Positions 7,334 through 41,423 of a stretch of DNA of 64,000 nucleotides are shown here, in pieces. A model generated the notes under the pieces. It saw only the letters and a list, made by a program, of their open reading frames with translations. It made no database searches and had not been told where the DNA came from. The stretch covers positions 78,450 through 142,449 of the forward strand of contig NZ_JOII01000015.1 of assembly GCF_000719955.1 (NCBI RefSeq), given 5' to 3'. A program made the translations under genes and the position numbers. Numbering within the stretch: position 1 is the stretch's first letter; every line of letters starts with the position of its first letter. This stretch comes from Streptomyces albidoflavus. GTDB taxonomy: Bacteria > Actinomycetota > Actinomycetes > Streptomycetales > Streptomycetaceae.

Positions 7334-7405
7334 GCGGGCCCCTGGCTGTCGGCTCCACGTGCCATGCTGACCGCGACCCGGGTCGACAGCGAGGGGAAGA
7401 CAACG

Positions 7406-7735
7406 GTGGCGGCTCAGTACTACGGCGCCGACAGCGAGAACGGCGACCGCATCGACGACCCCTCCGAGGACGCGCTGTTCATGATGATCAGCGACCTCAA
7501 CGACTCCGACAACACCTTCGTCGTCGTCCAGCCCGACGAGGACGATCCCGTCTGGTTCGCTTCCGTGGCCGTCCTGGACGAAGGCGGCTACGAGACCGTC
7601 CGCCGTGACACCACCCGCAACGAGCACGAGGTCACCACGGCGACCAGCGTCAACGACATCGCCCGCGACCTCACCATCTGGTTGGCCGCCCGTGACTTCC
7701 CCGGACGGCCAACCAGCCAGGTCAGCGAGTCCTGA
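7406..7735 (+). CDS. Small acidic protein, possible immunity-type protein
   Basis: A 109-residue acidic protein with an alternating beta pattern (Phe-Val-Val-Val-Gln-Pro, then Trp-Phe-Ala-Ser-Val-Ala-Val-Leu, then Tyr-Glu-Thr-Val-Arg) and a C-terminal helix. Size, charge and layout resemble Imm1-like immunity proteins of polymorphic toxin systems, but I recognise no defining motif, so the function is open. I prefer GTG 7406 because GAGGGGA ends about 8 bases upstream; ATG 7364 is in frame and also possible. It lies directly after the transposase remnant, with no toxin gene beside it. Confidence 0.6.
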   Translation: MAAQYYGADSENGDRIDDPSEDALFMMISDLNDSDNTFVVVQPDEDDPVWFASVAVLDEGGYETVRRDTTRNEHEVTTATSVNDIARDLTIWLAARDFPGRPTSQVSES

Positions 7736-7959
7736 AACAAGCCCTAGGGGGCTTGCCCGTTGTGTAGCTGCACGGGCTCGTGGCAGCGGTGGGACATGCC
7801 TGCCCGTGTCCTACCCGCGCGCCTGCTGGGGGAGCGGGTGCTTGTAGCTGTACCGGGGATGCGCCTGCCGGGCCCGTGCCCGTACCGGTCGGGCGGGTGC
7901 CTGCCCCGTGTCCGTACTGGCGAGGCTGGGCCTTGCCCTTACCTGGGGGGCCTCCCCCC

Positions 7960-8326
7960 CGCCCCTCCCCACCCCCAAGCCCCACTCCAGGGCAGCCCTC
8001 GGCCCCAGCCCGACGCAGCCCAGGCCCGGGTCAGCCCAGAGCCCTCTTCGGCCACCCAGGCTCTTCCGCCCAGCCCTTGTTCCGGCCTGGTCCAGCCCGG
8101 GCCCTGGTCGGCGCGAGTTCGACCCGGCCCGGCCTAGCTTCGGCCCCGGCCCGGCCCAGCGCCAGCCCGGCCCGGCTCCAGCCCTGACCGGCCCCGGCCC
8201 GCGGTCCAGCCCCGCCCCCGACCGACCCAGCCCTAGCCGACCCAGCCCAGCCCCGACCCAACGCAGCCCCCACCCCACCTCTCAGTCCCTCAGCCCATCC
8301 GCCCCCGCCCCTCCTGCCCTCCGCCC
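7960..8326. repeat. C-rich degenerate tandem repeat tract
   Basis: The gene-free stretch 7736-8327 contains a low-complexity region built from variants of CCCAGCCC and CCCGGCCC on the plus strand. The minus strand is correspondingly G-rich. At 8226-8248 four CCC blocks are spaced by 2, 7 and 2 bases, which makes a G-quadruplex-capable sequence on the minus strand. It sits in the 3' region of two convergent genes. Long open frames across it are composition artefacts. Confidence 0.6.
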
Positions 8327-8327
8327 C

Positions 8328-8501
8328 TCACTCCCCCCGCCGCCCAGGCACCCGAATCACCACGTGCCCCGAAGCAAGGTCGATCGGTCCCTTGCCCGGG
8401 TCGGCCGCGTCGGCGTCGACGCGGGTCAGTTCAAGGCGCTTCTTCTCCTCCTCGGTGTGGCGCCTTCCGGGAGCGAAGAGCTGCTCGATGAGGTTGAACA
8501 C
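8328..8501 (-). CDS. DUF6191-type microprotein (57 aa)
   Basis: A 57-residue protein from a GTG start at 8501 with GGAGG positioned upstream. It begins Val-Phe-Asn-Leu-Ile-Glu-Gln-Leu-Phe-Ala-Pro-Gly-Arg, continues His-Thr-Glu-Glu-Glu-Lys and Leu-Glu-Leu-Thr-Arg-Val-Asp, and contains Asp-Pro-Gly-Lys-Gly-Pro-Ile-Asp-Leu. I recognise this as the small DUF6191 family common in Streptomyces; its function is unknown. It lies 45 bases downstream of the sugar dehydrogenase gene on the same strand and may share its transcript. The GTG start and short length make it easy to miss. Confidence 0.8.
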   Translation of the reverse strand: MFNLIEQLFAPGRRHTEEEKKRLELTRVDADAADPGKGPIDLASGHVVIRVPGRRGE

Positions 8502-8546
8502 CTGACCACCTCCATGGCGCGGGCCGCCGGTGCGGCTGGTCCACGG

Positions 8547-9773
8547 TCAGCGCACCCGCACCTCCAGAATCCGGTCGTCGTCCTTCTCGGGGGAACCCCT
8601 GCCGTCTGTCTCGTTGGTCACCACCCACAGCTTGTCGCCGCCCGCGGAGACGACGGTGCGCAGGCGGCCGTACTCGCCCTCCAGGAACGCCTGGGGCTTG
8701 GCCGAGGGCTTGTCGCCGGAGAGCGGGATGCGCCAGAGCCGTTCGCCGCGCAGGCCGGCCATCCACACCGAGCCCTCGGCGACGGCGATGCCGCTCGGGG
8801 AGGCGTCGGCGGTGCGCCACTGCTCCACGGGGTTGCGGAAGTCGCCGTCCCCGTCGCCCTCGCCCTCCACGTCCGGCCAGCCGTAGTTGCCGTCCTTCTC
8901 GATGTGGTTCAGCTCGTCCCAGGTGTCCTGGCCGAACTCCGACGCCCACAGCCGGCGGTCCTCGTCCCAGGCCAGGCCCTGGACGTTGCGGTGGCCGTAG
9001 GACCAGACGACCGAGTCCTGGTCCGGGTTTCCCTTGGCCGGTTCGCCTTCCGGGGTCATCCGAAGGATCTTGCCGCCCAGGGACTCCTTGTCCTGCGCCA
9101 GGCCCTTGTCGCCCGTCTCGCCGGTGCCCACGTAGAGCATCTTGTCGGGGCCGAAGGCGATCCGGCCGCCGTTGTGGGTGAAGCCCTTGGGGATGCCCTT
9201 GAAGATCGTGCTCGGTGCGGAGAGCCGTTCACCGGCGGGCTTCTTCGCGTCGTACCGCATGCTGGCGATGCGGTTGTCCGAGGCGGTGGTGAAGTAGGCG
9301 TACACCAGCTGGTCCGTGGCGAAGTCGGGGGAGAGGGCCAGGCCGAGGAGGCCGCCCTCGCCCTCGGCGTCGACCCCGGGCACCTGGCCGGCCTCGCTTG
9401 TCTTGCCGGAGTCGCCGTCGACCTGGACGATCTCGCCCTCGTCGCGGGAGGCCACCAGGAGGTTCCCGTCGGGCAGCGGGGCCAGGCCCCAGGGCGACTT
9501 CAGGCCGGTCGCGAGGGTGCGGACCACCTCCACCGAGCCCTTGTCGGGCGGCGCGTCGGAGGCCGCCGACGGCGATCCGGAACCGGACGGGCTCGCCGAA
9601 CCTGGTGAGGACGGCCCGCTCTCCGGCTCGGCGGGGCCCGAGGAGCAGCCCGCCCCCAGGAGCGCCATCGCCACCGCCGCCGTGACCGCTCCCAGCGGGC
9701 GGCGGCGCCCGGACGGCCTCGCCGGCGCCGGGCGGGGCGGGGGTGTGCGGAGGTCGGGCGGAGTGGTCGGCAT
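8547..9773 (-). CDS. Lipoprotein PQQ-dependent sugar dehydrogenase (GSDH family)
   Basis: A 408-residue secreted beta-propeller enzyme of the glucose/sorbosone dehydrogenase family, which oxidises sugars with PQQ outside the membrane. The N-terminus has basic residues, a hydrophobic stretch and a lipobox Leu-Gly-Ala-Gly-Cys, followed by a Ser/Pro/Gly-rich linker. Propeller motifs include Ser-Pro-Trp-Gly-Leu-Ala, Gly-Glu-Gly-Gly-Leu-Leu-Gly, His-Asn-Gly-Gly-Arg-Ile, Gly-His-Arg-Asn-Val-Gln-Gly and Gly-Asn-Tyr-Gly-Trp-Pro. ATG 9773 was chosen because GAAGGGA lies 6-7 bases upstream; 42 further in-frame codons upstream are not protein-like. Confidence 0.92.
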   Translation of the reverse strand: MPTTPPDLRTPPPRPAPARPSGRRRPLGAVTAAVAMALLGAGCSSGPAEPESGPSSPGSASPSGSGSPSAASDAPPDKGSVEVVRTLATGLKSPWGLAPLPDGNLLVASRDEGEIVQVDGDSGKTSEAGQVPGVDAEGEGGLLGLALSPDFATDQLVYAYFTTASDNRIASMRYDAKKPAGERLSAPSTIFKGIPKGFTHNGGRIAFGPDKMLYVGTGETGDKGLAQDKESLGGKILRMTPEGEPAKGNPDQDSVVWSYGHRNVQGLAWDEDRRLWASEFGQDTWDELNHIEKDGNYGWPDVEGEGDGDGDFRNPVEQWRTADASPSGIAVAEGSVWMAGLRGERLWRIPLSGDKPSAKPQAFLEGEYGRLRTVVSAGGDKLWVVTNETDGRGSPEKDDDRILEVRVR

Positions 9774-9947
9774 CTTCGGTCCCTTCACGACGGTGTTGGT
9801 TGGTTTCCTAACCCGCCGCTCCCGCCGGAATGCGCGAATGGCTCCGATCAGCCGTGAACTGCGACGTTCTGTCACCGGTTTCTCAGCCTTCCGGGGCATC
9901 CGCGGACGTCAACCTCGTGCACCGCTGCGTCCGCCCTCGGCCGGGGC

Positions 9948-10955
9948 TCAGTCCCACGACCCCTGGGCCGGCGGCAGCCCGTCGATCTCCGCGAGGTCCG
10001 GGCCGGTCAGCCGCAGCCCGGCGGCCGCCGCGTTCTCCGCGACCCACCGGGCCTGCTTCGCCCCGGGCACCGGCACCACCAGCGGGGACCGCCCCAGCAC
10101 CCACGCCAGCGCCACCTGTGCCGGGGTCGCGCCGTGCCGCTCCCCGACCCGGCGCAGCCCCGCCACCAGCGGCTGGTTGGCGGCCATCATCTCGGCGGTG
10201 AACCGGGGATGGCGGGCCCGCAGGTCCTGGGGCTCGAACCCCTCCCCGGGCCGGAGCGTGCCGCTGAGGAAACCGTTCCCCAGCGGCATCGCCGCCATCA
10301 GCCCCACACCGCGTGCGGTGCACCACGGCAGCAGCGTGGCCAGCGCCTCCGGCGACCAGACCGACAGCTCTGCCTGGACGGCGCTGACCGGGAACACCTG
10401 CTGGACCCGCTCCAGCTGGCGAATCGTTCCCGCGTACAGCGCCTCCCCGTCCAGCGGGCCGCCGCCGCGGCGACCGCCCCGCGCACCGACCGCGCACAGT
10501 CCCAGCGCGCGCACCTTGCCCGCCGCGACCAGCTCCGCCATCGCGCCCCAGGTCTCCTCCACCGGCACCTCAGGGTCGGCGCGGTGCAGCTGGTAGAGGT
10601 CGATCACGTCCGTCTGCAGCCGCCGCAGCGAGGCGTCGCAGGCCCGTTTCACGTACCCGGGGCGGCCGTTGGCCACGATGTGCTGGTCACCGACGAGCAG
10701 GCCGCACTTGGTCGACACGAACGCCTCCCGGCGCCGGTCCCGCAACACCCTGCCGAGCAGCAGTTCGTTGGTGAAAGGGCCGTACATGTCGGCCGTGTCC
10801 AGCAGCGAGACCCCCGCGTCCAGGGCCGTGTTGAGCGCCCGCAGGGACTCCTCGCCCCGCTGCCGCGAGGCGGCGTACGCCCAGCTCATCGGCATGCATC
10901 CGAGCCCCACCGCCCCGACTTCGAGCGCCGTCGCGCCGATCGTCCTGCGCTCCAC
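9948..10955 (-). CDS. Aldo/keto reductase
   Basis: A 335-residue NADPH-dependent aldo/keto reductase with a TIM-barrel fold. The catalytic tetrad can be followed: Asp and Tyr in Asp-Thr-Ala-Asp-Met-Tyr-Gly, Lys in Ser-Thr-Lys-Cys-Gly, and His in Tyr-Gln-Leu-His. The physiological substrate cannot be deduced. I chose GTG 10955 because GGGAGGG sits about 9 bases upstream and the family normally begins with a short basic strand like Glu-Arg-Arg-Thr-Ile-Gly. The gene is divergent from the 2-hydroxyacid dehydrogenase, with about 80 bases between the starts. Confidence 0.93.
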   Translation of the reverse strand: MERRTIGATALEVGAVGLGCMPMSWAYAASRQRGEESLRALNTALDAGVSLLDTADMYGPFTNELLLGRVLRDRRREAFVSTKCGLLVGDQHIVANGRPGYVKRACDASLRRLQTDVIDLYQLHRADPEVPVEETWGAMAELVAAGKVRALGLCAVGARGGRRGGGPLDGEALYAGTIRQLERVQQVFPVSAVQAELSVWSPEALATLLPWCTARGVGLMAAMPLGNGFLSGTLRPGEGFEPQDLRARHPRFTAEMMAANQPLVAGLRRVGERHGATPAQVALAWVLGRSPLVVPVPGAKQARWVAENAAAAGLRLTGPDLAEIDGLPPAQGSWD

Positions 10956-11037
10956 CTGGCCTGACCCTCCCGCTGCGCCTCCGAGCGACCCCAACGTAAC
11001 CTCTGGCCCTCAGGGCGGTTCGCATAGCCTCCTGACC

Positions 11038-11988
11038 ATGACTACCGATGTGTGGCTCCCGTTCGCACCCGAGGAGATCCCGGGCCTGCCGTCCGCCGCC
11101 GATCACGGCCTGACCTACCGTTTCTGGGACGGCGGCGACACCTTCCCCGCCGATCCCGCCGACTGCGCCTTCTACGTCGTCCCCTATCTGAAGGGCGCGG
11201 AGATCGCCGTGCGCCCCCTGGCCGGGATGGCCCGGGCCGAGGTCGTGCAGACGCTCTCGGCCGGCGTCGACCACGTCCAGGCCGGGATGGGGCCGCTCCA
11301 CCCCGGCGTGCGCCTGTGCAACGCGCGCTCCGTCCACGAGGCGAGCACCGCCGAGCTGACCCTCGCCCTGATACTCGCCTCGCTGCGCGGCATCCCCCGC
11401 TTCGTCGAGGGCCAGCGCCAGGAGGAGTGGCGTTCCGGCTTCTACCCCGCGCTGGCCGACAAGACCGTGCTGATCGTCGGCTACGGCTCGATCGGCTCGG
11501 CCATCGAGGACCGGCTCGCGCCCTTCGAGTGCGCGCGGGTGCTGCGCGTCGCGCGCTCCGCCCGTGACACGGAGCGCGGCCCGGTGCATCCGCTCGCCGA
11601 ACTGCCCTCCCTGCTCCCCGAGGCGGACGTGGTGGTGCTCTCCACGCCGCTGACCGAGGCCACCCGGGGGCTGGCCGACGCCGAGTTCCTCGCCCGGATG
11701 CGGGACGGCGCCCTCCTCGTCAACGTGGCGCGCGGCCCCGTCGTGGACACCAAGGCGCTCCTCGCCGAGGTGGAGAGCGGCCGGCTGACCGCCGCCCTGG
11801 ACGTGACCGACCCCGAACCGCTGCCCGCGGGCCACCCGCTGTGGCACGCTCCGGGTGTGCTCATCAGCCCCCACGTGGGCGGCTCGACGTCCGCGTTCCT
11901 GCCGCGCGCCAAGCGGCTGCTGGCCCGTCAGCTGACCCACTGGACGGCGGGCGAGCCGCTCGACAACGTGGTGTACACGACGGCCTGA
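11038..11988 (+). CDS. D-isomer-specific 2-hydroxyacid dehydrogenase
   Basis: A 316-residue NAD(P)-dependent dehydrogenase of the D-2-hydroxyacid family. The nucleotide-binding Gly-Tyr-Gly-Ser-Ile-Gly lies near residue 146. The family signature Gly-Ala-Leu-Leu-Val-Asn-Val-Ala-Arg-Gly is at about 224, and the catalytic His lies in Ser-Pro-His-Val-Gly-Gly near the C-terminus. It lacks the ACT domain found in the serA product downstream, so it is not a regular phosphoglycerate dehydrogenase; substrates may be glyoxylate- or hydroxypyruvate-like. ATG 11038 is the first start that matches the family N-terminus. Confidence 0.93.
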   Translation: MTTDVWLPFAPEEIPGLPSAADHGLTYRFWDGGDTFPADPADCAFYVVPYLKGAEIAVRPLAGMARAEVVQTLSAGVDHVQAGMGPLHPGVRLCNARSVHEASTAELTLALILASLRGIPRFVEGQRQEEWRSGFYPALADKTVLIVGYGSIGSAIEDRLAPFECARVLRVARSARDTERGPVHPLAELPSLLPEADVVVLSTPLTEATRGLADAEFLARMRDGALLVNVARGPVVDTKALLAEVESGRLTAALDVTDPEPLPAGHPLWHAPGVLISPHVGGSTSAFLPRAKRLLARQLTHWTAGEPLDNVVYTTA

Positions 11989-12197
11989 ACGCCCGGCGCG
12001 GAACCCGGCGTTCCGCGCACCGCTCCGCCGCGTGGCAGGGTTGCCACCGGCACGTGCGGGCGGGGCGGAGCCCCTTGCCCGGAGGGTGCGCCCTGCCGGG
12101 CAAGGGCTCCCGAGAGCCCCGAACGGACACGCTCCGCAGCGAATCGGGCGCTACGGGTGGTCAACAGCCACGTTCGGTCACTGTATGTAGGTGACCC

Positions 12198-12212
12198 CTG
12201 TCCCTGAGTGAC
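12198..12212. promoter_or_regulatory. BldD-box-like operator
   Basis: The 15-base site CTGTCCCTGAGTGAC fits the published BldD pattern nTnACnCwGnGTnAn with one mismatch (T for A at the fourth base). It lies about 240 bases before the GGDEF-EAL gene. A flanking inverted repeat, GGTCAC (12176-12181) and GTGACC (12191-12196), adds dyad symmetry. The rest of 11989-12451 holds no gene I can support and probably serves as promoter and leader. Confidence 0.45.
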
Positions 12213-12451
12213 CATCCTGGTGTATCGTCGCCGCAGGGGTGGCGCCAGGACGACAGGCGCCAGGGGAGAGAAAGCCAAGAACCGCGAGGGGGGCGACGGA
12301 TGCTGTACGGCCCGGACACCCATGACGGCCCAGACACCCACGATCCGACGCGACACCGGACCGCCCGGTCCCACGGGCGCCGCCGAGGCGGCCGGCCCCG
12401 CCCGCCGGAGCTCCCGACCGCCGGCCGCCCGCTCCGCCGGGGAGCCCCCCG

Positions 12452-15400
12452 GTGAGCGGCCCCGGCGTCATGCCCGCCGCGCCGCCCGCACCGCCGGCGG
12501 CCACCGGCCCGGAGTCCGCCCGCGGCCCGGCCGGCTCAGGAGTCCTCGGCCAGCTCCTCCTCGCCCTCGTCTGCGGCGGGTACGCCGTCGGCGCCGTCCT
12601 CGGCTGGGGCTCCCCCCGGCTCTCCATGGCGATGGGTGACTTCGGCCTGAGCGTCGCCGCAGGGGTCGCCGCCGTCTCCTGCTTCCTCTACGCCCGCACC
12701 CGCGACAGCCGCTTCCGGCCCGCCTGGATCCTCTTCGGGATCTCCTCCGCCATGGCCTCCCTGGGGAACGCCGCCTGGGGCTGGTACGAGGTGATCCTCG
12801 ACACCGAGGTCCCGAACCCGAGCATCGCCGACCTCTTCTTCCTCTGCTTCGCGCCGCCCGCCGTCGTCGGCCTGCTCGTCCTCGCCAAGCGCCCCGTCAC
12901 CCGCGCCGGGTGGGTCTGCCTGGCCCTGGACTCCTGGCTCATCGGCGGCTCCCTGCTGACCCTCGCCTGGTCGCTGGCGCTGGCCCACACCGCCGACATC
13001 GAGGGCGGCAGCGTCTCGTACGCCGCGCTCAACCTCGCCTATCCGCTGCTCGACATCGCGCTCGTCAGCATGATCCTGGCGCTCCACTTCCGGCGCTCCT
13101 CGGCGGGGCGCTCCGCGCTCAACACCGCCATCGGCGCCCTCGCCCTGACGGTGCTGTGCGACGCCCTGTTCACCTCGCCGCTGCTGCACAACAGCTACCG
13201 CTCCGGCCAGATCCTGGACGCCGGATGGTTCGCCGGCTCGCTGCTGCTCGCCTACGCCCCCTGGGTCGGCCGGCACCGCGAGAGCGAGCGCGGCGCCGTG
13301 GAGGAGCCGCCGGCCCAGGACGCCCGGCCCGGCGCCGTCCTCCCCGCCGGCCACCCGGCGATCGCCGCGCACGACCGCACCAGCCCGATCTCCGGCTCGC
13401 TCGCCGCCCTGACGCCCTACCTCGCGGCCGCCGTCTGCACCCTCGGCATCCTCTACAACGTGGTCAACGGCCGCAGCGTCGACCGCGTCGTCCTGGTCAC
13501 CGCCTGCACCGTCGTCCTCGCCCTCGTCGTACGGCAGGGCATCATGCTCATCGACAACATCACCCTCACCCGCGAACTCGCCCACCAGGAGAACCACTTC
13601 CGCTCCCTGGTGCAGGGCTCCAGCGACGTCATCATGATCGCCGACCCCAGCGGCACCCTGCGCTACGTCAGCCCCGCCGCCTCCGGGGTCTACGGCCGCG
13701 ACGCCTCCGAGCTGGAGGACACCGAGCTCTCCGCCCACATCCACCCCGGCGACCTCGGCCGCGTGGTCCACGAGGTACGCCGCTTCCTCGCCGCCGACCC
13801 GGCCCTGGAGCCCACCACCCGCATCGAGTGCCGCTTCCAGTCCGGCCGGGGCACCTGGCTCAACGTCGAGTCCACCGTCAACCGCCACCAGGGCGGCCTC
13901 ATCTTCAACAGCCGCGACGTCACCGAACGCGTCCGCCTCCAGGCGCAGTTACAGCACAGCGCCGAGCACGACCCGCTCACCGACCTGCCCAACCGCGCCC
14001 TGTTCACCCGCCGCGTCAGCCAGGCCCTGTCCGGCCGCCGCAGCAGCGACCGCGGCGCCGCCGTCCTCTTCATCGACCTGGACGGCTTCAAGGCGGTCAA
14101 CGACACCATCGGCCACCAGGCCGGTGACGAACTCCTCGTCCACGCCGCCCGCCGCCTCGACGAGGCCGTCCGCGCCGGGGACACCGCCGCCCGCCTCGGC
14201 GGCGACGAGTTCGCCGCCCTCATCCTCGGCGACACCGGCGAGGACCGCGCCGCCCGCGAAGGCCACATCCAGGAACTCGCCGACCGCCTCCGCAAACGCC
14301 TCTCCGAGCCCTACGCCATCGACGGCAACGATGTCCGCGTCGCCGCCAGCATCGGCGTCGCCTTCGCCGAACCGGGCCAGAACGCCGGAGAACTCCTGCG
14401 CAACGCCGACCTCGCCATGTACCGCGCCAAGGCCGCCGGCAAGGACCGGGTCGTGCTCTACGCCCCGCAGATGCAGGCCGACGTCGTCCGCAAGGCCGAG
14501 CTGGCCTCCCGGCTCCGCTCCGCGCTCAACGCCGGCGAGTTCGCCCTGCTCCACCAGCCCGTCGTCGACCTCACCACCGGCAAGGTCGCCGCCGTCGCCG
14601 CGCAGGCCCGCTGGCGCTCCGGCCAGGGCATACTCTTCACCCCGGCCGAGTTCCTCCGCGTCGCGGACAACGGCGACCGGGCCGCCGAGCTGGGCCGCTG
14701 GACCCTGGAGCAGGCCATCGCCCAGGCCGCCGAACGCCACCGCTCCGGCCACGCAGCACCCGTCGTCGTCCGCCTCGGCGCCCGCCGCCTGCTCGACCGC
14801 GCGGCACCCCCGTACGCCGTCGAGGCGCTCCTGACCCGTTACGGGCTACCCTCCGGCGGCCTCGTCCTGGAGCTGGCCGACAGTGACAGCTCGGTCCCGC
14901 AGGACGCCCTGGAGCAGCGCCTCACCGTGCTGCGGCGGCTCGGCGTCCGGATCGCCCTCGACGGGTTCGGCGGCGGCCACGCGGCCGCCGACGCCCTGCG
15001 GCGGCTCCCGGTGGACATACTCAAACTCGACCGGAGCCTGGTCGAGGGGGTCGTCGAGTCGGCCCGCCAGCACAAGATCACCGCGGGCGTCCTGCGGATC
15101 GCCGCCGACCTCGGCCTCCAGACCGTCGCCGAGGGTGTCGACCGGCCCGAGCAGGTGGTGGCGCTGCGGACGATGGGGTGCACCCACGCCCAGGGCATGG
15201 CCTTCGCCGGCCACCTCGACGAGTACCGCCTGCGCCGCACGCTCACCCACGGCAACTACGCCCTGCCCGCGGGGCCGGTGGTCCCCGCCCCGCAGGGGCC
15301 GCCGCACGCTGCCTTCGTCCCCGCCGCCACGGGCGGCTCCGGGGGTCCCGGGAGCGAGCCGCCCGGAGCCGGCGGCGGTGCGAGCCTGGTCACACGGCGC

Positions 15401-15499
15401 GGCGCCCCTGCCGTGGTCGCCCAGGCAGCGGCTGCGGGGATGCCGCGCGGCCCCCGCCCCGTCGGCCCACATCATGAGACTCCTGTCCCACCTACTTGA
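12452..15499 (+). CDS. Membrane PAS-GGDEF-EAL cyclic-di-GMP protein
   Basis: A 1015-residue composite c-di-GMP protein. A hydrophobic N-terminal region (about 30-385) holds multiple membrane helices, followed by a PAS domain (about 381-495), GGDEF (about 505-670) and EAL (about 690-930). The GGDEF domain looks active: Gly-Gly-Asp-Glu-Phe at 583-587 and an inhibitory-site Arg-Ala-Gly-Asp at 574-577. The EAL domain is degenerate: the signature Glu-Ala-Leu is Ala-Gln-Ala at 717-719, and the usual Asp-Asp-Phe-Gly is Asp-Gly-Phe-Gly at 837. Codon 500 is TTA (13949-13951), so translation should need the bldA tRNA. Start is GTG 12452 after GGGGAG. The product is probably a diguanylate cyclase with a regulatory EAL-like domain. 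Confidence 0.92.
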
Positions 15500-15501
15500 C
15501 A
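15496..15501 (+). promoter_or_regulatory. Possible -35 element before the ilvB leader
   Basis: A perfect TTGACA overlaps the stop codon of the GGDEF-EAL gene. A good -10 at the standard spacing is not visible, so the ilvB promoter is only tentatively placed here. Confidence 0.25.
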
Positions 15502-15532
15502 GTCACCACACGGCGGGGAGAGGGTCAGTGCC

Positions 15533-15574
15533 ATGCGCACCCGAATTCTCGTACTTGGAAAGCGCGTCGGCTGA
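15533..15574 (+). CDS. ilvB leader peptide (13 aa)
   Basis: A 13-codon ORF encodes [13 protein letters not shown] and stops at TGA 15572. A purine-rich GGGGAGAGGG lies about 10 bases upstream. The run Ile-Leu-Val-Leu names exactly the amino acids made by the downstream pathway. Ribosome stalling here when charged Ile, Leu or Val tRNA is scarce should decide between termination and read-through into ilvB. Such leader-peptide attenuators before actinobacterial ilvB genes have been described. Confidence 0.8.
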
Positions 15575-15612
15575 AGCCAGGACATCCGTCCGGCGAACGT
15601 ATCCGACGCGCT

Positions 15613-15646
15613 CCCCTCGCTTGCCACCTGGCACGAGGGGTTTTTT
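15613..15646 (+). terminator. ilvB attenuator terminator
   Basis: CCCCTCG (15613-15619) pairs with CGAGGGG (15634-15640). An inner stem TGCC/GGCA extends it, and TTTTTT follows directly. This is a textbook intrinsic terminator, rare in this genome style. The last leader codons, AGCGCGTCGG (15561-15570), are a perfect 10-base complement of CCGACGCGCT (15603-15612), immediately before the terminator stem. That pairing is a candidate alternative helix formed when the ribosome stalls upstream. Confidence 0.85.
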
Positions 15647-15759
15647 GTTGCACAGGTGACCCCAAAAGCCCGCAAAGAACCCGCGAGGCGATGAGGGGGA
15701 AACCCGTACAGAACCGCCTAGACCCGCACACACCCTCAGCTTCGAGAAGAGACACGCAG

Positions 15760-17607
15760 ATGACCGAGCAGGCCACCGGGGCTCATCCGACGCCGCGGCC
15801 CCGTTCCTCCGGACCGCAGTCCGCGCCCGTCGAGCACGTCACGGGTGCGCAGTCCCTCATTCGCTCTCTTGAGGAAGTCGGCGCCGACACCGTGTTCGGC
15901 ATTCCGGGCGGTGCGATCCTCCCGGCGTACGACCCGATGATGGACTCCACCCGGGTCCGTCACGTGCTGGTCCGCCACGAGCAGGGCGCGGGTCACGCGG
16001 CCACCGGATACGCCCAGGCCACCGGCCGGGTCGGGGTCTGCATGGCCACCTCGGGTCCCGGTGCCACCAACCTGGTCACCCCGATCGCCGACGCCCACAT
16101 GGACTCCGTCCCGCTGGTCGCGATCACCGGCCAGGTCGCCGCCAAGTCGATCGGTACGGACGCCTTCCAGGAGGCGGACATCTGCGGCATCACCATGCCG
16201 ATCACCAAGCACAACTTCCTGGTCACCAAGGCCGAGGACATCCCGCACACCATCGCCGAGGCGTTCCACATCGCCTCCACCGGCCGCCCCGGGCCCGTCC
16301 TCGTCGACATCGCCAAGGACGCCCTCCAGGCGAAGACCACCTTCAGCTGGCCCCCGCAGACGGACCTGCCCGGCTACCGCCCGGTCACCAAGCCGCACGC
16401 CAAGCAGATCCGCGAGGCCGCCAAGCTCATCACCGCCGCCCGGCGCCCCGTGCTGTACGTCGGCGGCGGCGTCGTCAAGGCCGGGGCCACCGCCGAGCTG
16501 AAGGTCCTCGCCGAGCTGACCGGCGCCCCCGTCACCACCACCCTGATGGCGCTCGGCGCCTTCCCCGACAGCCACCCGCAGCACGTCGGGATGCCCGGGA
16601 TGCACGGTGCGGTCACCGCCGTCACCGCGCTCCAGAAGGCCGACCTGATCGTCGCCCTCGGCGCCCGCTTCGACGACCGCGTCACCGGCAAGCTCGACAG
16701 CTTCGCCCCGTACGCCAAGATCGTCCACGCCGACATCGACCCGGCCGAGATCGGCAAGAACCGCGCCGCCGACGTGCCGATCGTCGGGGACGCCCGGGAG
16801 GTCATCGCGGACCTCGTCCAGGCCGTCCAGGCGGAGCACACAGAGGGCCGCACCGGCGACTACACCGCCTGGTGGAAGGATCTCGACCGCTGGCGCGACA
16901 CCTACCCGCTCGGCTACGACCAGCCGGAGAACGGCATGCTGGCCCCCCAGCACGTCATCGAGCGCATCGGGCAGCTCGCCCCCGACAACACCGTCTTCGC
17001 CGCCGGCGTCGGCCAGCACCAGATGTGGTCCGCCCACTTCATCGACTACGAGCAGCCCGCCACCTGGCTCAACTCCGGCGGCGCCGGGACGATGGGGTAC
17101 GCCGTCCCGGCCGCCATGGGCGCCAAGGCCGGCCGCCCCGACGCCACCGTCTGGGCCATCGACGGCGACGGCTGCTTCCAGATGACCAACCAGGAACTGA
17201 CCACCTGCGCGCTGAACAACATCCCGATCAAGGTCGCCATCATCAACAACGGCGCCCTCGGCATGGTCCGCCAGTGGCAGACCCTCTTCTACAACCAGCG
17301 CTACTCCAACACCGTCCTGCACGCCGGTCCCGAGGGCGCCGACCAGCCCAACGCCGGTACCCGCGTCCCCGACTTCGTCAAGCTCGCCGAGGCCATGGGC
17401 TGCGTCGCGATGCGCTGCGAGTCGCCGGACGAGCTGGACGCCGTCATCGCCAAGGCCAACGCCATCAACGACCGGCCCGTCGTCGTCGACTTCATCGTCC
17501 ACGAGGACGCCATGGTCTGGCCGATGGTCGCCGCCGGCACCTCCAACGACGAGGTCATGGCCGCCCGAGGCGTCCGCCCCGACTTCGGCGACAACGAAGA
17601 CGACTGA
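15760..17607 (+). CDS. ilvB: Acetolactate synthase large subunit
   Basis: The 615-residue catalytic subunit of acetohydroxyacid synthase, which condenses pyruvate with pyruvate or 2-oxobutyrate in the first common step of Val, Leu and Ile synthesis. It carries the ThDP-activating Glu (about residue 74, in Arg-His-Glu-Gln-Gly-Ala-Gly-His), the central FAD-associated domain, and the ThDP/Mg motif from Gly-Asp-Gly near 468 to Asn-Asn near 496. A 38-residue Pro/Ser-rich N-terminal extension precedes the catalytic core. ATG 15760 has GAGAAGAGA upstream. It heads ilvB-ilvN-ilvC and is controlled by the upstream leader attenuator. Confidence 0.97.
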
Positions 17608-36304: not shown

Positions 36305-37060
36305 ATGCGCCTGACCCCCACCGAACGCGACCGCCTCCTGATCTTCAACGCCGCCCAGCTCGCCCGGGCCCGGCAGGCGCGCGGGCTGCGGCTGAACGTC
36401 CCGGAGGCGACCGCGCTCATCTCGGACACGGTCTGCGAGGCGGCGCGGGACGGGGCGCGGCTGGCGGAGGCGGTGGCGGCGGGGCGGGCCGTGCTCGGGC
36501 CGGACGACGTGCTGCCGGGCGTCGCCGACGTGCTGACCGAGATCCAGGTCGAGGCGGTCTTCGAGGACGGGTCCCGGCTCGCCGTGCTGGCCGACCCCAT
36601 CGGAGGCGGCCACACCGGCGATCAGGCGCCCGGCGCCCTGCTCCCGGGCCCGCCCCACGCCGAGCCGAGTCCCATGCTGACCGTGGCGGTCACCAACACC
36701 GCCACGGTCCCGGTCAGCGTCACCTCGCACTTCCACTTCTTCGAGGCCAACCCGCGCCTGCGCTTCGACCGGGCCGCCGCCTACGGCATGCGCCTCGCCG
36801 TCCCGGCCGGCTCCTCGCTCCGCTTCGGCCCGGGCGAGACCCGCGAGGCGGGGCTGGTGCCGATCGGCGGGGCGCGCGTCGTGACCGGTTTCGCCGGGCT
36901 GGTCGACGGCCCGCTGGACGCCCCCGGCGCCCGCGCCGAGGCCCTGCGCCGCGCCGCCGCCTGCGGCTACCTCGGCGCCGAAGCACCCGGGACGGAGCCC
37001 GCCCCGCCCGGCACCACCCCCGCCCCGCCGGGCGCCCCCACCCCGGAGACCGACGCATGA
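36305..37060 (+). CDS. ureAB: Urease-like fused gamma and beta subunits
   Basis: A 251-residue fusion. Residues 1-100 match urease gamma (Arg-Leu-Thr-Pro-Thr-Glu-Arg-Asp, Leu-Asn-Val-Pro-Glu-Ala). Residues about 118-225 match urease beta, with Ser-His-Phe-His-Phe-Phe-Glu-Ala-Asn, Phe-Asp-Arg-Ala-Ala-Ala and Phe-Gly-Pro-Gly-Glu-Thr-Arg. A Pro/Gly/Ala tail ends the protein. These subunits are structural partners of the catalytic alpha subunit. The gene overlaps ureC by ATGA, so the two are coupled. The alpha subunit is divergent, so the complex may not act on urea. Confidence 0.9.
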   Translation: MRLTPTERDRLLIFNAAQLARARQARGLRLNVPEATALISDTVCEAARDGARLAEAVAAGRAVLGPDDVLPGVADVLTEIQVEAVFEDGSRLAVLADPIGGGHTGDQAPGALLPGPPHAEPSPMLTVAVTNTATVPVSVTSHFHFFEANPRLRFDRAAAYGMRLAVPAGSSLRFGPGETREAGLVPIGGARVVTGFAGLVDGPLDAPGARAEALRRAAACGYLGAEAPGTEPAPPGTTPAPPGAPTPETDA

Positions 37061-38865
37061 GCGACCCCGCCGGCCGGGCCCTGCCCGAGGAGCTGACCCC
37101 GCGCCCCCGCGCCTTCCCGCACCTGGCCCGTACCCCGCACGGCCGCCGTACCGCGCCCGACGAGGCGGCCACGGCCTCCGATCCGTACGCCTACGCCGCC
37201 GTCCACGGCCCCCGCGCCGGGGACAGGGTGCGGCTCGGTGACACGGGGCTGACGGTGCGGGTCGAGGCCGACGCGCAGCGGCCCGGCGACGAGTTCCTGG
37301 CCGGGTTCGGGAAGACCGCGCGGGACGGGCTGCACCTGCGGGCCGCCGCCGTGCGCGACACCTGCGACCTGGTGATCAGCAACGTGCTCGTGATCGACGC
37401 GGTGCTCGGCATCCGGAAGGTCTCGATCGGTGTCCGGGAAGGCCGCATCCACGCCGTGGGGCGCGCGGGGAACCCGGACACGCTCGACGGGGTCGACGTG
37501 GTGGTCGGCACCGGCACCACGATCGTGTCGGGGGAGGGGCTGATCGCGACCGCCGGGGCGATCGACACCCATGTGCACCTGCTCTCGCCCCGCGTCATGG
37601 AAGCCTCCCTCGCCTCCGGCGTGACCACGATCATCGGCCAGGAGTTCGGCCCCGTCTGGGGCGTCGGCGTCAACTCGCCGTGGGCCCTGCGTCACGCCTT
37701 CGCCGCCTTCGACGCCTGGCCCGTCAACATCGGTTTCCTCGCCCGCGGTTCCTCCTCGCACCCGGCGCCGCTGGTCGAGGCGCTGGCGGAGGGCGGGGCG
37801 TGCGGGTTCAAGGTGCACGAGGACATGGGGGCGCACACCCGGGCGCTGGACACCGCGCTGCGCGTCGCCGAGGAGTACGACGTGCAGGTGGCCCTGCACA
37901 GCGACGGCCTCAACGAATGCCTCTCCGTCGAGGACACCCTCCAGGTGCTCGACGGGCGCACCATCCACGCCTTCCACATCGAGGGATGCGGCGGCGGCCA
38001 CGTCCCCAACGTGCTGCGCATGGCGGGCGTGCCGAACGTCATCGGCTCCTCCACCAACCCCACGCTGCCCTTCGGCCGGGACGCCGTCGCCGAGCACTAC
38101 GGCATGATCGTCTCGGTCCACGACCTCAAGCCCGAGCTGCCCGGCGACGCGGCGATGGCCCGCGACCGCATCCGCGAGTCGACGATGGGCGCCGAGGACG
38201 TCCTGCACGACCTGGGCGCCATCGGCATCACCTCCTCCGACGCGCAGGGGATGGGCCGGGCCGGCGAGACGATCCGCCGCACCCTCCAGCTCGCCGCCAA
38301 GATGAAGCGCGAACGCGGCCCGCTCGACGGCGACGGCGACGGCGAGAGCGACGACAACGCCCGCGTCCTGCGCTACCTCGCCAAACTGACCGTCAACCCG
38401 GCCCGCGCGCACGGCCTCTCCCACGAGGTCGGCTCGCTGGAGCCCGGCAAACTGGCGGACATCGTGCTGTGGCGCCCCGAGTACTTCGGCGCCAAGCCCC
38501 AGCTGGTCCTGAAGTCCGGCTTCCCCGCCTACGGCGTCACCGGCGACCCCAACGCCGCCACCGACACCAGCGAACCGCTCGTCCTCGGCCCCCAGTTCGG
38601 CGCGCACGGGGCGGCCGCCGCCGAGCTGTCCGTCGCCTTCGTCGCGGGCGCCGCCGTGGGCCTCGGCGCCGACGCCCTGCCCACCCGCAGGCGCCGCGTC
38701 CCCGTCCGAGGCACCCGGAACATCGGCCCCGCCGACCTCCTCCTCAACTCCCGCACCGGCCAGGTCGACGTGGACGCCCGCACCGGCCTCGTCACCCTCG
38801 ACGGCGACCCGGTCCGCTCCGGCCCCGCCGACTCCGTCAGCCTCAACCGCCTCTACTTCCTCTGA
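37057..38865 (+). CDS. ureC: Divergent urease alpha subunit
   Basis: A 602-residue amidohydrolase related to urease alpha. The metal ligands are kept: His172 and His174 (Thr-His-Val-His), the carbamylated Lys252 in Gly-Phe-Lys-Val-His-Glu-Asp, His254, His281 (Ala-Leu-His-Ser-Asp), His315 (Gly-Gly-Gly-His) and Asp395 (Ser-Ser-Asp-Ala-Gln). The flap motif, normally Val-Cys-His-His-Leu-Asp-Pro, is Ser-Val-His-Asp-Leu-Lys-Pro at 353-359: the catalytic His stays (355) but the flap Cys is Val. The pocket segment after Ile-Gly (193-210) also differs from canonical ureases, and an N-terminal extension of about 40 residues is present. No ureD, E, F or G is nearby. It is probably a nickel-type hydrolase of altered specificity. 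Confidence 0.9.
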   Translation: MSDPAGRALPEELTPRPRAFPHLARTPHGRRTAPDEAATASDPYAYAAVHGPRAGDRVRLGDTGLTVRVEADAQRPGDEFLAGFGKTARDGLHLRAAAVRDTCDLVISNVLVIDAVLGIRKVSIGVREGRIHAVGRAGNPDTLDGVDVVVGTGTTIVSGEGLIATAGAIDTHVHLLSPRVMEASLASGVTTIIGQEFGPVWGVGVNSPWALRHAFAAFDAWPVNIGFLARGSSSHPAPLVEALAEGGACGFKVHEDMGAHTRALDTALRVAEEYDVQVALHSDGLNECLSVEDTLQVLDGRTIHAFHIEGCGGGHVPNVLRMAGVPNVIGSSTNPTLPFGRDAVAEHYGMIVSVHDLKPELPGDAAMARDRIRESTMGAEDVLHDLGAIGITSSDAQGMGRAGETIRRTLQLAAKMKRERGPLDGDGDGESDDNARVLRYLAKLTVNPARAHGLSHEVGSLEPGKLADIVLWRPEYFGAKPQLVLKSGFPAYGVTGDPNAATDTSEPLVLGPQFGAHGAAAAELSVAFVAGAAVGLGADALPTRRRRVPVRGTRNIGPADLLLNSRTGQVDVDARTGLVTLDGDPVRSGPADSVSLNRLYFL

Positions 38866-38873
38866 GGACCGCC

Positions 38874-39953
38874 ATGCCCGACGCCCCCGCCCCGTCCCTG
38901 CGCGGCACCGTCCCGCCGGGCTTCCGGATGCCGCCCGAGTGGGCCCCGCACCTGCGCACCTGGATGGCCTGGCCCGGCCCCAACCCGACCTTCGCCACCG
39001 AGGCCGCACTCGCCTCGGCCGAACGCGCCTGGGCCGAGGTGGCCCGCACCGTGCGCCGCTTCGAACCGGTCACCGTGCTCGCCGGACCCGGCCGCGCCGA
39101 AGGCGCCCGCGCGCTCCTCGGGCCCGGCATCGAGGTGGTCGAACGCCCGCTGGACGACGCCTGGATGAGGGACATCGGCCCCACCTTCGTCACCCGCGCG
39201 GAGGACGGCGCCCGGGCCGTGCTCGACTGGACGTTCAACGGCTGGGGCGCGCAGGAGTGGGCCCGCTGGGAGCGGGACGCGAGGATCGGCGGCGAGGTCG
39301 CCGCGCTGGCCGGGGTCCCGGCGTACCGGACGGGGCTGGTCAACGAGGGCGGCGGGCTGCACGTCGACGGGGAGGGCACCGTGCTGCTCACCGAGACCGT
39401 CCAGCTCGACCCGGACCGCAACCCCGACCTGACCCGCGCCGAGGTGGAGGCCGAGATCCACGCGGGGCTCGGTACCAGCCGGGCGGTGTGGCTGCCGCGC
39501 GGGCTGACCGGTGACTACGGGCGGTTCGGGACGCGCGGCCACGTCGACATCGTCGCGGCGTTCGCCCGGCCCGGCGTGGTCGTGGCGCACACCCAGCCCG
39601 ACCCGGCCCACCCCGACCACGAGGTCTGCAAGGAGATCACCGGCGTGCTGCGCGCCGCCAAGGACGCGGCGGGCCGTTCGCTGGAGGTGGTCGAGGTGCC
39701 CGCGCCCACCGTGCTGGAGGTGGACGGGGAGTGGGCCGACTACTCGTACATCAACCACTACCTGTGCAACGGCGGGGTCGTCCTCTGCGCCTTCGACGAC
39801 CCGCGCGACGCCGAGGCCGCCGCGCTCTTCCGCCGCCTCTTCCCGGACCGCACCGTCGTCCCCGTCGACGCCCGCCCGGTCTTCGCGGCCGGCGGCGGCA
39901 TCCACTGCATCACCCAGCAGGAACCGGCGCCGGCCCCGGCAGGACAGGGCTGA
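38874..39953 (+). CDS. aguA: Agmatine deiminase
   Basis: A 359-residue enzyme of the peptidyl-arginine-deiminase-like fold that converts agmatine to N-carbamoylputrescine and ammonia. The catalytic Cys lies in Gly-Gly-Gly-Ile-His-Cys-Ile-Thr-Gln-Gln at the C-terminus. Trp-Met-Arg-Asp-Ile-Gly-Pro and the His in Gly-His-Val-Asp complete the guanidinium site. It starts 8 bases after ureC and is clearly in the same operon. N-carbamoylputrescine amidase, the usual next enzyme, is not encoded here. Confidence 0.95.
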   Translation: MPDAPAPSLRGTVPPGFRMPPEWAPHLRTWMAWPGPNPTFATEAALASAERAWAEVARTVRRFEPVTVLAGPGRAEGARALLGPGIEVVERPLDDAWMRDIGPTFVTRAEDGARAVLDWTFNGWGAQEWARWERDARIGGEVAALAGVPAYRTGLVNEGGGLHVDGEGTVLLTETVQLDPDRNPDLTRAEVEAEIHAGLGTSRAVWLPRGLTGDYGRFGTRGHVDIVAAFARPGVVVAHTQPDPAHPDHEVCKEITGVLRAAKDAAGRSLEVVEVPAPTVLEVDGEWADYSYINHYLCNGGVVLCAFDDPRDAEAAALFRRLFPDRTVVPVDARPVFAAGGGIHCITQQEPAPAPAGQG

Positions 39954-40024
39954 GCGGCCCGGCGTCCCCGTCCCCACGAACGCAAAGCACTCAAGTAATC
40001 CCGATCGTTGCCCCATACACCTTG

Positions 40025-40047
40025 TGTCGGAATGGATCATTCCGGCA
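40025..40047. promoter_or_regulatory. 23-bp near-perfect palindrome at the transporter start
   Basis: TGTCGGAATG (40025-40034), GAT, then CATTCCGGCA (40038-40047): 9 of 10 arm positions are complementary. It covers the putative ATG at 40032, so it is a good operator candidate, or a sign that translation really begins further down, at ATG 40059. Confidence 0.5.
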
Positions 40048-41423
40048 GCGTGCCGAGCATGGGACGACAGCAGTGGAAGAAAATCTGGGTCGGCTCGGCC
40101 GGCAACATGGTCGAGTGGTTCGACTGGTTCGTGTACGCGAGCTTCGCCACGTACTTCGCGGGTTCCTTCTTCCCCAGCGGCAACCCGACCGCCCAGCTCA
40201 TGAACACCGCCGGCATCTTCGCCGTCGGCTTCTTCATGCGGCCGGTCGGCGGCTGGCTGCTCGGCCGGGTCGGTGACCGCAAGGGCCGCAAGGCGGCGCT
40301 GACCCTCACCGTCTCGCTGATGTCGGCCTCCGCCGTGCTGATCGCGATCGCGCCGACCTACGGTGTGGCCGGCTACGGCGGCGCCGCCGTCCTCCTGGTC
40401 GCCCGCCTGCTCCAGGGCCTCTCGGTCGGCGGCGAGTACGCGGCCAGCGCGACCTACCTGACCGAGGCGTCCGACGCCGACCGGCGCGGCTTCGCCTCCA
40501 GCTTCCAGTACGTTTCGATGACCGCGGGCCAGCTCCTCGGCCTCGGCCTGCAGATCGTGCTCCAGCGGACCATGTCGGACGACACCCTGCACAGCTGGGG
40601 CTGGCGCATCCCGTTCATCATCGGCGCCCTCGGCGCGGCCGTCGTCTTCTACCTCCGCCGCAACATGCTGGAGACCGAGGTCTACGCCGAGTCCTCCGAG
40701 GACGGCGTCGAGCGGGCCGACGACAAGGGCACGATGAAGGCGCTGTGGCAGCACCGGCGCCAGGCGTTCCTGGTCGTGGCGCTGACGATGGGCGGCACCG
40801 TCGCGTACTACACGTACACGACCTACCTGACCAAGTACCTGTCGAACTCCGCCGGGCTGCCCAAGGAGACGGCGACGCTCGTCTCGTTCTGCGCGCTCTT
40901 CGTCTTCATGTGCGTCCAGCCGCTCGCCGGGATGCTCTCCGACCGGATCGGCCGCCGCCCGCTGCTGATCACCTTCGCCGTCGGCTCGACCTTCCTGACC
41001 GTGCCGATCATGACGCTGCTCCAGCACGCCGGGTCGTTCTGGCCGGCGCTCGGCCTCTCGCTCCTCGCGCTGCTCATCATCACCGGCTACACCTCCATCA
41101 ACGCCTGCGTGAAGGCCGAACTCTTCCCCACCGGCATCCGCGCGCTGGGCGTCGCCCTGCCCTACGCCCTCGGCAACGCCCTCTTCGGCGGCACCGCCGA
41201 GTACGTCGCGCTCTGGTTCAAGAACGGCGGGACGGAGTCGGGCTACTACTGGTACGTGGCGGGGTGCGCCGCGGTCTCGCTCGTCGTCTACCTGGCGATG
41301 AAGGAGACCCGGGACATCGACCTCAACCGGGTCGGCGCCGAGACGGGTCCGCCCTCCGCCGAGGCCGGCCCCGCCTCCCCGGCCTCCGGGCCCGCGAAAA
41401 CGGACGCCCCGCTCGCATCCTGA
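40032..41423 (+). CDS. MHS-family (metabolite:H+ symporter) MFS transporter
   Basis: A 463-residue, 12-helix major facilitator of the metabolite:proton symporter group, which usually carries di- or tricarboxylates, betaines or similar solutes. Family marks are Asn-Met-Val-Glu-Trp-Phe-Asp-Trp at the first helix, Gly-Asp-Arg-Lys-Gly-Arg-Lys in loop 2-3, and Gly-Glu-Tyr in helix 5. It follows the urease-agmatine deiminase operon on the same strand after about 80 bases and could import its substrate, but the palindrome at its start suggests separate control. The start is uncertain: ATG 40008, 40032 or 40059. No good ribosome site precedes any of them. Confidence 0.88.
   Translation: MDHSGSVPSMGRQQWKKIWVGSAGNMVEWFDWFVYASFATYFAGSFFPSGNPTAQLMNTAGIFAVGFFMRPVGGWLLGRVGDRKGRKAALTLTVSLMSASAVLIAIAPTYGVAGYGGAAVLLVARLLQGLSVGGEYAASATYLTEASDADRRGFASSFQYVSMTAGQLLGLGLQIVLQRTMSDDTLHSWGWRIPFIIGALGAAVVFYLRRNMLETEVYAESSEDGVERADDKGTMKALWQHRRQAFLVVALTMGGTVAYYTYTTYLTKYLSNSAGLPKETATLVSFCALFVFMCVQPLAGMLSDRIGRRPLLITFAVGSTFLTVPIMTLLQHAGSFWPALGLSLLALLIITGYTSINACVKAELFPTGIRALGVALPYALGNALFGGTAEYVALWFKNGGTESGYYWYVAGCAAVSLVVYLAMKETRDIDLNRVGAETGPPSAEAGPASPASGPAKTDAPLAS

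What the first reader, a model, noticed from the sequence alone, without database searches (positions are those of the whole stretch)
36305..39953. Urease-like operon with altered flap, coupled to agmatine deiminase and without accessory genes
UreC keeps all metal ligands (His172, His174, Lys252, His254, His281, His315, Asp395) and the catalytic flap His355, but the flap Cys is Val and the next His is Asp. The pocket segment at 193-210 also differs strongly from canonical urease. ureDEFG are absent, while agmatine deiminase lies 8 bases downstream. Agmatine deiminase makes the ureido compound N-carbamoylputrescine, and no amidase for it is encoded here. The urease-like complex may hydrolyse that or a related ureide.
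Basis: partly seen in the sequence, partly recalled or inferred. Interest (0 to 1): 0.78.

Follow-up and report, generated by a model that had tools for sequence, protein, structure and literature searches.

The report
Urease look-alike paired with agmatine deiminase
Streptomyces and many related bacteria carry a urease-like enzyme that lacks urease's helper genes and signature pocket and is inherited together with agmatine deiminase, so it probably breaks down the product of that enzyme rather than urea.

Summary
Window 36305-39953 carries fused ureAB, ureC and aguA (4-bp overlap, then an 8-bp gap). One correction: the sixth metal ligand is His307, not His315. UreC is under the curated urease-alpha cut-off (634 against 680 bits).

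Variant UreC rows form one group in a tree built without the trait columns. AguA lies directly downstream in 80 of 80 best-matching Streptomyces loci; in 344 genomes of the class, 47 of 54 variant-bearing genomes have AguA. In 40 non-Streptomyces class genomes with AguA but no variant, AguA adjoins a nitrilase in 18 and an amidase-signature protein in 15; no variant locus examined shows either. UreG is beside 0 of 120 variant loci and not found in 29 of 62 variant genomes. A pocket Gly of urease is Glu or Asp in 50 of 54 variant rows, fitting a cationic substrate.

Best reading: a urease-family N-carbamoylputrescine hydrolase. Substrate and metal are untested. Exceptions: one Streptomyces keeps aguA without ureABC, and nine variant genomes lack AguA.

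The parts
36305..37060 (+). ureAB: fused urease gamma-beta subunit gene (251 aa)
   Evidence: PF00547 and PF00699; NF009671 319.7 bits against cut-off 243
37057..38865 (+). ureC variant: urease-alpha-like catalytic subunit (602 aa), overlaps ureAB by 4 bp
   Evidence: PF00449, PF01979; TIGR01792 634.1 bits, under its cut-off of 680; NF009686 738 bits, over its cut-off of 354; model matches K. aerogenes urease alpha, TM 0.90, rmsd 1.5
37636..37683 (+). altered substrate-pocket segment, residues 194-209, with a 4-residue deletion relative to canonical urease; Glu196 codon at 37642-37644
   Evidence: position 196 is E 47, D 3, G 4 in 54 variant rows and G in 21 of 21 canonical rows; E 117 and D 1 of 118, D 114 of 114 in two sets of top hits
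38116..38124 (+). flap codons 354-356 (Val-His-Asp in place of Cys-His-His)
38248..38250 (+). Gly398 codon; Ala in most canonical ureases (K. aerogenes Ala363, numbering recalled)
   Evidence: G in 54 of 54 variant rows; canonical 19 A, 2 G
38874..39953 (+). aguA: agmatine deiminase family gene (359 aa)
   Evidence: PF04371 362.8 bits; TIGR03380 296.4 bits, under its cut-off of 381.8; matches solved agmatine deiminases 3h7c and 1vkp, E about 8.5e-75
40008..41423 (+). MFS metabolite:H+ symporter gene downstream (start not settled); probably not a fixed part of the unit
   Evidence: PF00083/PF07690; relative found in 31 of 80 Streptomyces loci

Best explanation
The unit encodes a two-step route for agmatine. 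AguA deiminates agmatine to N-carbamoylputrescine and ammonia. The UreAB-UreC complex, a urease relative, then hydrolyses the ureido group of N-carbamoylputrescine, giving putrescine, CO2 and ammonia, in place of the nitrilase AguB. The dinuclear metal site, bridging lysine and flap histidine of urease are kept; the pocket is rebuilt (a deletion, Ala to Gly at 398) and given an acidic residue (Glu196) that could hold the terminal ammonium of the substrate. It does not need the UreDEFG nickel delivery set. Shown here: gene order, conservation, residue changes, alternative partners of AguA, UreG absence in many genomes. Inferred: substrate, role of Glu196, metal, products.
For: aguA downstream of the variant on the same strand in 80 of 80 Streptomyces loci, median tblastn-hit gap 34 bases. 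In 344 class genomes 47 have both, 7 variant only, 43 AguA only, 247 neither (Fisher 2e-25; outside Streptomyces 21/7/40/239, 3e-11; not corrected for phylogeny). Of the 40 non-Streptomyces AguA-only genomes, AguA adjoins a nitrilase in 18 and an amidase-signature protein in 15; 5 have neither (2 of them at contig ends), 2 were not fetched. No locus shows the variant together with either, nor do the 80 Streptomyces loci or the 7 deep loci. AguA of G212, 53% identical to the window's, sits beside an over-cut-off AguB, which ties this AguA branch to N-carbamoylputrescine. On the AguA tree the urease label is split over several places (11 changes, at least 9 forced by starred branches; the count is raised by rows labelled none). 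Variant ureABC lies near polyamine-type ABC genes in G037, G262 and others. In G007, G103 and G196, with AguA next to the variant, no AguB-type nitrilase reaches 1e-55.
Against: No biochemical result. G535 keeps aguA next to ilvE with no ureABC between, and no variant was found in that genome. Seven class genomes and G022 and G037 have the variant without AguA. Eight further class genomes have both but not adjacent, and in G559 they are on two contigs. The AguA is under the curated agmatine deiminase cut-off. All 9 Streptomyces of the phylum set also have an AguB-like nitrilase of 254-263 bits. PMC3293853 (passage) reports no effect of arginine or ArgR on SCO5527 or SCO5525-5526. Some variant loci have other importers and an Amidohydro_3 gene and no aguA, so the substrate range may be wider. 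Residue contrasts are partly phylogenetic.
Confidence: 0.6

Rival explanations
1. The variant hydrolyses a different N-substituted urea. AguA in this branch would act on another guanidine taken up by a neighbouring permease, and the variant on its ureido product.
For: AguA is under the TIGR03380 cut-off. A permease hit (NCS1 type, PF02133 confirmed in G162) stands divergently 1-311 bases before ureAB in 41 of 80 Streptomyces loci. Other variant loci have polyamine-type importers or an Amidohydro_3 gene and no AguA next to them. G346 and G528 have several AguA paralogues around a variant ureC.
Against: The same AguA branch includes a gene paired with over-cut-off AguB (G212); the motifs of solved agmatine deiminases are kept.
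Confidence: 0.22
2. It is an ordinary urease, matured by the UreD/F/G proteins of the canonical clusters elsewhere in the genome, and its place beside aguA is incidental.
For: All metal ligands kept; the window genome and 32 others of the 62 variant genomes have UreG; every name shown is urease subunit alpha; called urea-utilizing in PMC3293853 (passage).
Against: UreG not found in 29 of 62 variant genomes, including Streptomyces G162, whose canonical UreC is cut short; UreG beside 6 of 6 canonical loci tested and 0 of 120 variant loci; pocket rebuilt; conserved link with aguA.
Confidence: 0.1
3. The AguB-like nitrilase elsewhere in the genome does the AguB step in trans, and the variant urease serves some other step next to AguA.
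For: An AguB-like nitrilase of 254-263 bits is in 9 of 9 Streptomyces of the phylum set; G535 keeps aguA without ureABC.
Against: In the window genome that nitrilase gene overlaps a dihydropyrimidinase gene; it is also in G023, which has neither AguA nor the variant; none is found at 1e-55 in G007, G103 and G196, which have AguA beside the variant.
Confidence: 0.08

Closest known systems
Nickel urease (UreABC, EC 3.5.1.5), e.g. K. aerogenes 2kau and related entries
   Same: Fold (TM 0.90), gamma, beta and alpha subunits, all seven metal ligands including the bridging Lys, flap His and the catalytic Arg position
   Different: No UreG/UreD beside it; pocket GGG to GQE/D, 4-residue deletion, Ala363 to Gly, flap Cys and next His variable; under the TIGR01792 cut-off
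Iron urease UreA2B2 of Helicobacter mustelae (3qga)
   Same: A urease relative with another metal, found beside a nickel urease in some Helicobacter (PMC11541087, passages); its independence of accessory proteins is recalled, not seen in a call
   Different: UreA2B2 is described as a urease; the variant has a rebuilt pocket and another operon partner; metal of the variant unknown
N-carbamoylputrescine amidohydrolase AguB (nitrilase superfamily, TIGR03381)
   Same: Genomic slot next to aguA and predicted reaction
   Different: Unrelated fold: nitrilase against a metal-dependent amidohydrolase
ure(AB)C clusters of S. coelicolor (SCO5525-5526) and S. avermitilis (SAV2715)
   Same: By description the same genes (not compared by sequence here); the lack of accessory genes was noted in PMC2492869 (2008, passages)
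   Different: The passages read draw no functional conclusion about them and do not mention aguA
Agmatine deiminase AguA (TIGR03380, PAD_porph)
   Same: Family and motifs
   Different: Under the curated equivalog cut-off (296 against 381.8)

Membership tests
Urease (EC 3.5.1.5) | Seven metal ligands in UreC, including the Lys that is carbamylated | tested here: met
   Invariant in 54 of 54 variant rows; among 232 top hits one lacks the Asp; carbamylation itself not testable
Urease (EC 3.5.1.5) | Urease alpha equivalog score (TIGR01792 cut-off 680) | tested here: not met
   634.1 bits; the looser subfamily model NF009686 is passed
Urease (EC 3.5.1.5) | Canonical urea pocket (GGGTGP segment, CTPG-type loop, Ala363) | tested here: not met
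Urease (EC 3.5.1.5) | Nickel accessory genes linked to the structural genes | tested here: not met
   No UreD/UreG hit in 120 variant loci against UreG in 6 of 6 canonical loci
Urease (EC 3.5.1.5) | UreG somewhere in the genome | tested here: inconclusive
   Present in the window genome and 33 of 62 variant genomes in all, not found in 29
Urease (EC 3.5.1.5) | Hydrolysis of urea | not testable with these tools
   Needs an assay
Agmatine deiminase AguA | TIGR03380 equivalog cut-off 381.8 | tested here: not met
   296.4 bits; the AguA genes beside over-cut-off AguB in G031, G139, G158 and G212 are not over it either
Agmatine deiminase AguA | PAD_porph domain with the motifs of solved agmatine deiminases | tested here: met
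   PF04371 and alignment to 3h7c and 1vkp
N-carbamoylputrescine amidohydrolase AguB | Nitrilase (CN_hydrolase) fold | tested here: not met
   UreC is an amidohydrolase-fold protein
N-carbamoylputrescine amidohydrolase AguB | Linked to aguA, with no other candidate for the step | tested here: inconclusive
   Link shown; an unlinked AguB-like nitrilase exists in Streptomyces
N-carbamoylputrescine amidohydrolase AguB | Conversion of N-carbamoylputrescine to putrescine | not testable with these tools
   Needs an assay

The most novel reading that the evidence does not exclude
A whole branch of the urease family in Actinomycetota has become an accessory-independent, perhaps nickel-free, hydrolase of N-substituted ureas carried by cationic amines, and serves as a third, unrelated solution (beside nitrilase and amidase-signature enzymes) to the N-carbamoylputrescine step; the many proteins of this branch now named urease subunit alpha would be misnamed.
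Probability: 0.4. Interest if true: 0.85.

Novelty: new variant of a known kind. Interest (0 to 1): 0.73.

Why it matters
Urease is taught as a urea-specific nickel enzyme that needs helper proteins to mature. A widespread branch that has changed substrate and lives without the helpers would show how that active site evolves, fill a missing step in Streptomyces agmatine use, and correct urease annotation in a genus of great practical importance. It is directly testable in a laboratory strain.

Tried and rejected
Considered and dropped: (1) Flap Cys to Val as the key change: Cys is kept in 19 of 118 close relatives and Val is also in L133, which has UreG beside it. (2) Degenerate pseudogene: ligands fixed in 54 of 54 variant rows, frame open. 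(3) The MFS gene as a fixed part: 31 of 80 loci. (4) Regulation by ArgR as support: PMC3293853 reports no effect. (5) Reading substrate contacts off the AlphaFold model: no coordinates were at hand; Glu196 follows directly on strand 189-195, so its place at the barrel mouth is an inference. (6) A class-wide search around G007 reached only 9 genomes: variant in 5 at 1e-160, plus partial G103; AguA in 4. (7) Relatives outside Actinomycetota: named hits were all of that phylum (taxonomy recalled), but only the best 120 of each are listed, so other phyla are not excluded.

Dropped rows and limits; left out were UreC frames under 530 aa or with a stop, four duplicate canonical and six duplicate variant rows; its 54 variant rows are not the same set as the 54 class genomes; left out were short loci L139-L197, AguA hits under 300 aa, and five frames with a stop after extension (L200, L259, L310, L314, L318); six URE rows repeat another row (short and long locus of one gene); eight of 240 proteins under 480 aa left out. 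In one search, hits without a locus were classified by sequence only for G202:C4, G092, G070 and G103, so 15 variant genomes is a lower bound. G458 and G474 were not fetched. Extra AguA paralogues of several Streptomyces were not looked at. Thresholds differ: UreG 1e-40, 1e-30; many genomes are drafts.

Recalled, not from a call: K. aerogenes residue numbering, accessory independence of UreA2B2, the reaction of AguB. Literature statements rest on the searches; of the 21 papers with carbamoylputrescine and urease, two were read in passages (PMC9397018, PMC3534580), the rest seen as listing only.
Full report
What is there. The window lies in a 7.08 Mb genome (G000) of Streptomyces type: all 80 loci kept from the genome scan are Streptomyces. 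ureAB (36305-37060), ureC (37057-38865) and aguA (38874-39953) run in one direction, with an ATGA overlap and then an 8-base gap. UreAB is the fused gamma-beta subunit; UreC has the urease alpha domains but scores 634 bits on TIGR01792, under its cut-off of 680; AguA scores 296 on TIGR03380, under 381.8.

The rest of the genome. There are two further UreC genes with canonical flap and loop, with UreG and UreD beside them. The best AguB-like gene (255 bits, cut-off 410) overlaps a dihydropyrimidinase gene, so it is most simply a beta-ureidopropionase. One arginase-family gene exists.

The variant is a family. Of 451 relatives found in genome contigs the best 80 were kept; all 80 have aguA downstream on the same strand and 79 have a ureAB hit. 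In 344 genomes of the class, 54 carry the variant (55 genomes with hits at 1e-168, less G071, which has a canonical flap), in Streptomyces and in families f75, f80, f82, f86, f88, f89 and f90; named relatives include Kitasatospora, Embleya, Thermobispora and Kineococcus. Deeper branches are in other classes of the phylum: G196, G202 and six f15 genomes, and named Solirubrobacteraceae, Conexibacter and Baekduia proteins. With pocket and flap columns left out, 54 variant rows and 21 canonical rows separate on one branch (SH-aLRT 99, quick search); the root is not known.

What changed. In these 54 variant rows the ligands, flap His355 and Arg371 are invariant. Position 196 is Glu 47, Asp 3, Gly 4, against Gly in 21 of 21 canonical rows; the four Gly rows are the f15 type, which has two Glu close by in the same segment (AGFEEP). 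Position 398 is Gly in 54 of 54, against Ala 19 and Gly 2. The flap Cys is Val 42, Ser 7, Cys 2, Thr 2, Ala 1. Among 232 top hits of two searches, position 196 is Glu or Asp in all (117 E and 1 D of 118; 114 D of 114) and 398 is Gly in all; the flap Cys is kept in 19 of 118 in one set and none of 114 in the other; one protein lacks the Asp ligand. The AlphaFold model (mean pLDDT 87.8) matches K. aerogenes urease alpha at TM 0.90; Glu196 follows strand 189-195.

Accessory genes. Five UreD/UreG queries hit 6 of 6 canonical-type loci (UreG in each) and none of 120 variant loci, the window included. In whole genomes UreG was not found in 8 of the 15 variant genomes classified in the phylum set and in 21 of 47 further ones of the class set, together 29 of 62. 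Streptomyces G162 has a shortened canonical UreC (362 aa), no UreG, and a full-length variant beside aguA. Several of these genomes are drafts of 90 to 97% completeness.

Coupling to AguA. Class set: 47 with both, 7 variant only, 43 AguA only, 247 neither. Phylum set: AguA in 13 of the 15 classified variant genomes, not in G022 and G037; in G202 the AguA is of another, over-cut-off type on another contig. Within 37 Streptomyces of the class set: 26 both, 8 neither, 3 AguA only; of these G104 has aguA at a contig end, G549 has a 42% identical paralogue, and G535 has aguA next to ilvE with no ureABC between. Outside Streptomyces 12 of the 21 class genomes with both have them within about 2 kb, 8 have them apart, and in G559 they are on two contigs. 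Linked pairs occur in several orders: ureAB-ureC-aguA in six f75 genomes, aguA-ureAB-ureC in two f86 genomes and G486, convergent in G264, G502 and G545; beyond the class, ureAB-ureC-aguA in G196, aguA-ureAB-ureC in G007 and divergent in G103.

Who stands in its place. In the 40 non-Streptomyces class genomes with AguA but no variant, AguA adjoins a CN_hydrolase (nitrilase) in 18, an amidase-signature protein (PF01425 family) in 15, neither in 5 (two at contig ends), and 2 were not fetched. In G560 the amidase hit is in pieces. Six more nitrilase pairs are in the phylum set: G031, G139, G158, G212, G067, G234. No locus holds the variant together with a nitrilase or amidase partner, and none of the 80 Streptomyces loci does. 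Within one family, f75, G481 has the amidase partner while six genomes have the variant beside AguA and G497 has the variant alone. On an AguA tree of 107 rows the four partner labels change 18 times and the urease label 11 times; rows labelled none and six repeated rows are included. Unrelated hydrolases alternating in one slot is the pattern of non-homologous replacement, and since the nitrilase version includes over-cut-off N-carbamoylputrescine amidases (G031, G139, G158, G212), the simplest common reaction is hydrolysis of N-carbamoylputrescine.

Transport context. Variant ureABC lies next to PotD- and PotB-like genes in G037, and near polyamine-type ABC genes in three f80 genomes and, with weaker matches, in G446, G470 and G531. 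An Amidohydro_3 gene was found in 4 of 4 such loci looked at (L239, L245, L249, L254). A divergent NCS1-type permease hit stands 1-311 bases before ureAB in 41 of 80 Streptomyces loci; the family was confirmed by Pfam in G162. The window itself has none there.

Literature. PMC2492869 (passages) noted in 2008 that S. coelicolor and S. avermitilis have urease clusters of ure(AB)C only. PMC3293853 (passages) calls SCO5525-5526 urea-utilizing ureABC, lists SCO5527 and SCO6414 among homologues of the ADC pathway (that they stand for AguA and AguB is my reading of the order), and found no effect of ArgR or arginine on them. That these are the same genes as in the window rests on the descriptions, not on a sequence comparison. 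None of the listings shows by its title or abstract start a urease relative acting on N-carbamoylputrescine; the library lacks most subscription journals.

Judgement. That the variant works on the product of AguA is well supported by context (about 0.8 for some ureide of this pathway); that the product is N-carbamoylputrescine, about 0.6. Metal and independence of UreDEFG are supported only by gene absence.

Noticed in passing
L267 (G346:C19) 4402-17444 and L269 (G528:C123) 6223-15845: Two Streptomyces have a variant ureABC next to a 43-44% identical AguA, with further AguA paralogues, Ser/Thr kinase genes and a TetR regulator (L267) and an oligopeptide-type ABC ATPase (L269). It may be a separate pathway for another guanidine.
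   Followed up: partly
L239 5757-14301, L245 4406-8413, L249 7176-11321, L254 438-8497: Variant ureABC beside an Amidohydro_3 gene, in L239 and L254 with polyamine-type importer genes, without aguA adjacent; suggests further cationic ureide or amide substrates.
   Followed up: partly
L130 9291-11003 and L132 9436-11148 (G202, G071): Fused ureAB and a ureC with canonical flap and UreG alongside, but a different pocket (GGGLGPVT, shortened loop): another intermediate urease type.
   Followed up: no
L201 7228-8928 and relatives: An amidase-signature protein overlapping or adjoining aguA in 15 class genomes, a candidate unrecognised N-carbamoylputrescine amidase of its own.
   Followed up: partly
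L271 (G535:C193) 43-2331: aguA directly beside ilvE with ureABC missing, in a genome where the variant was not found.
   Followed up: partly
L214 4741-6288 (G162) and 41 of 80 Streptomyces loci: A divergent NCS1-type permease just before ureAB, absent from the window; a relative also stands beside aguA-amidase clusters in L203, L297, L299 and L304.
   Followed up: partly
L133 8792-10495 (G062): UreC with canonical-type loop but flap VVHS in place of VCHH, with UreG beside it.
   Followed up: no
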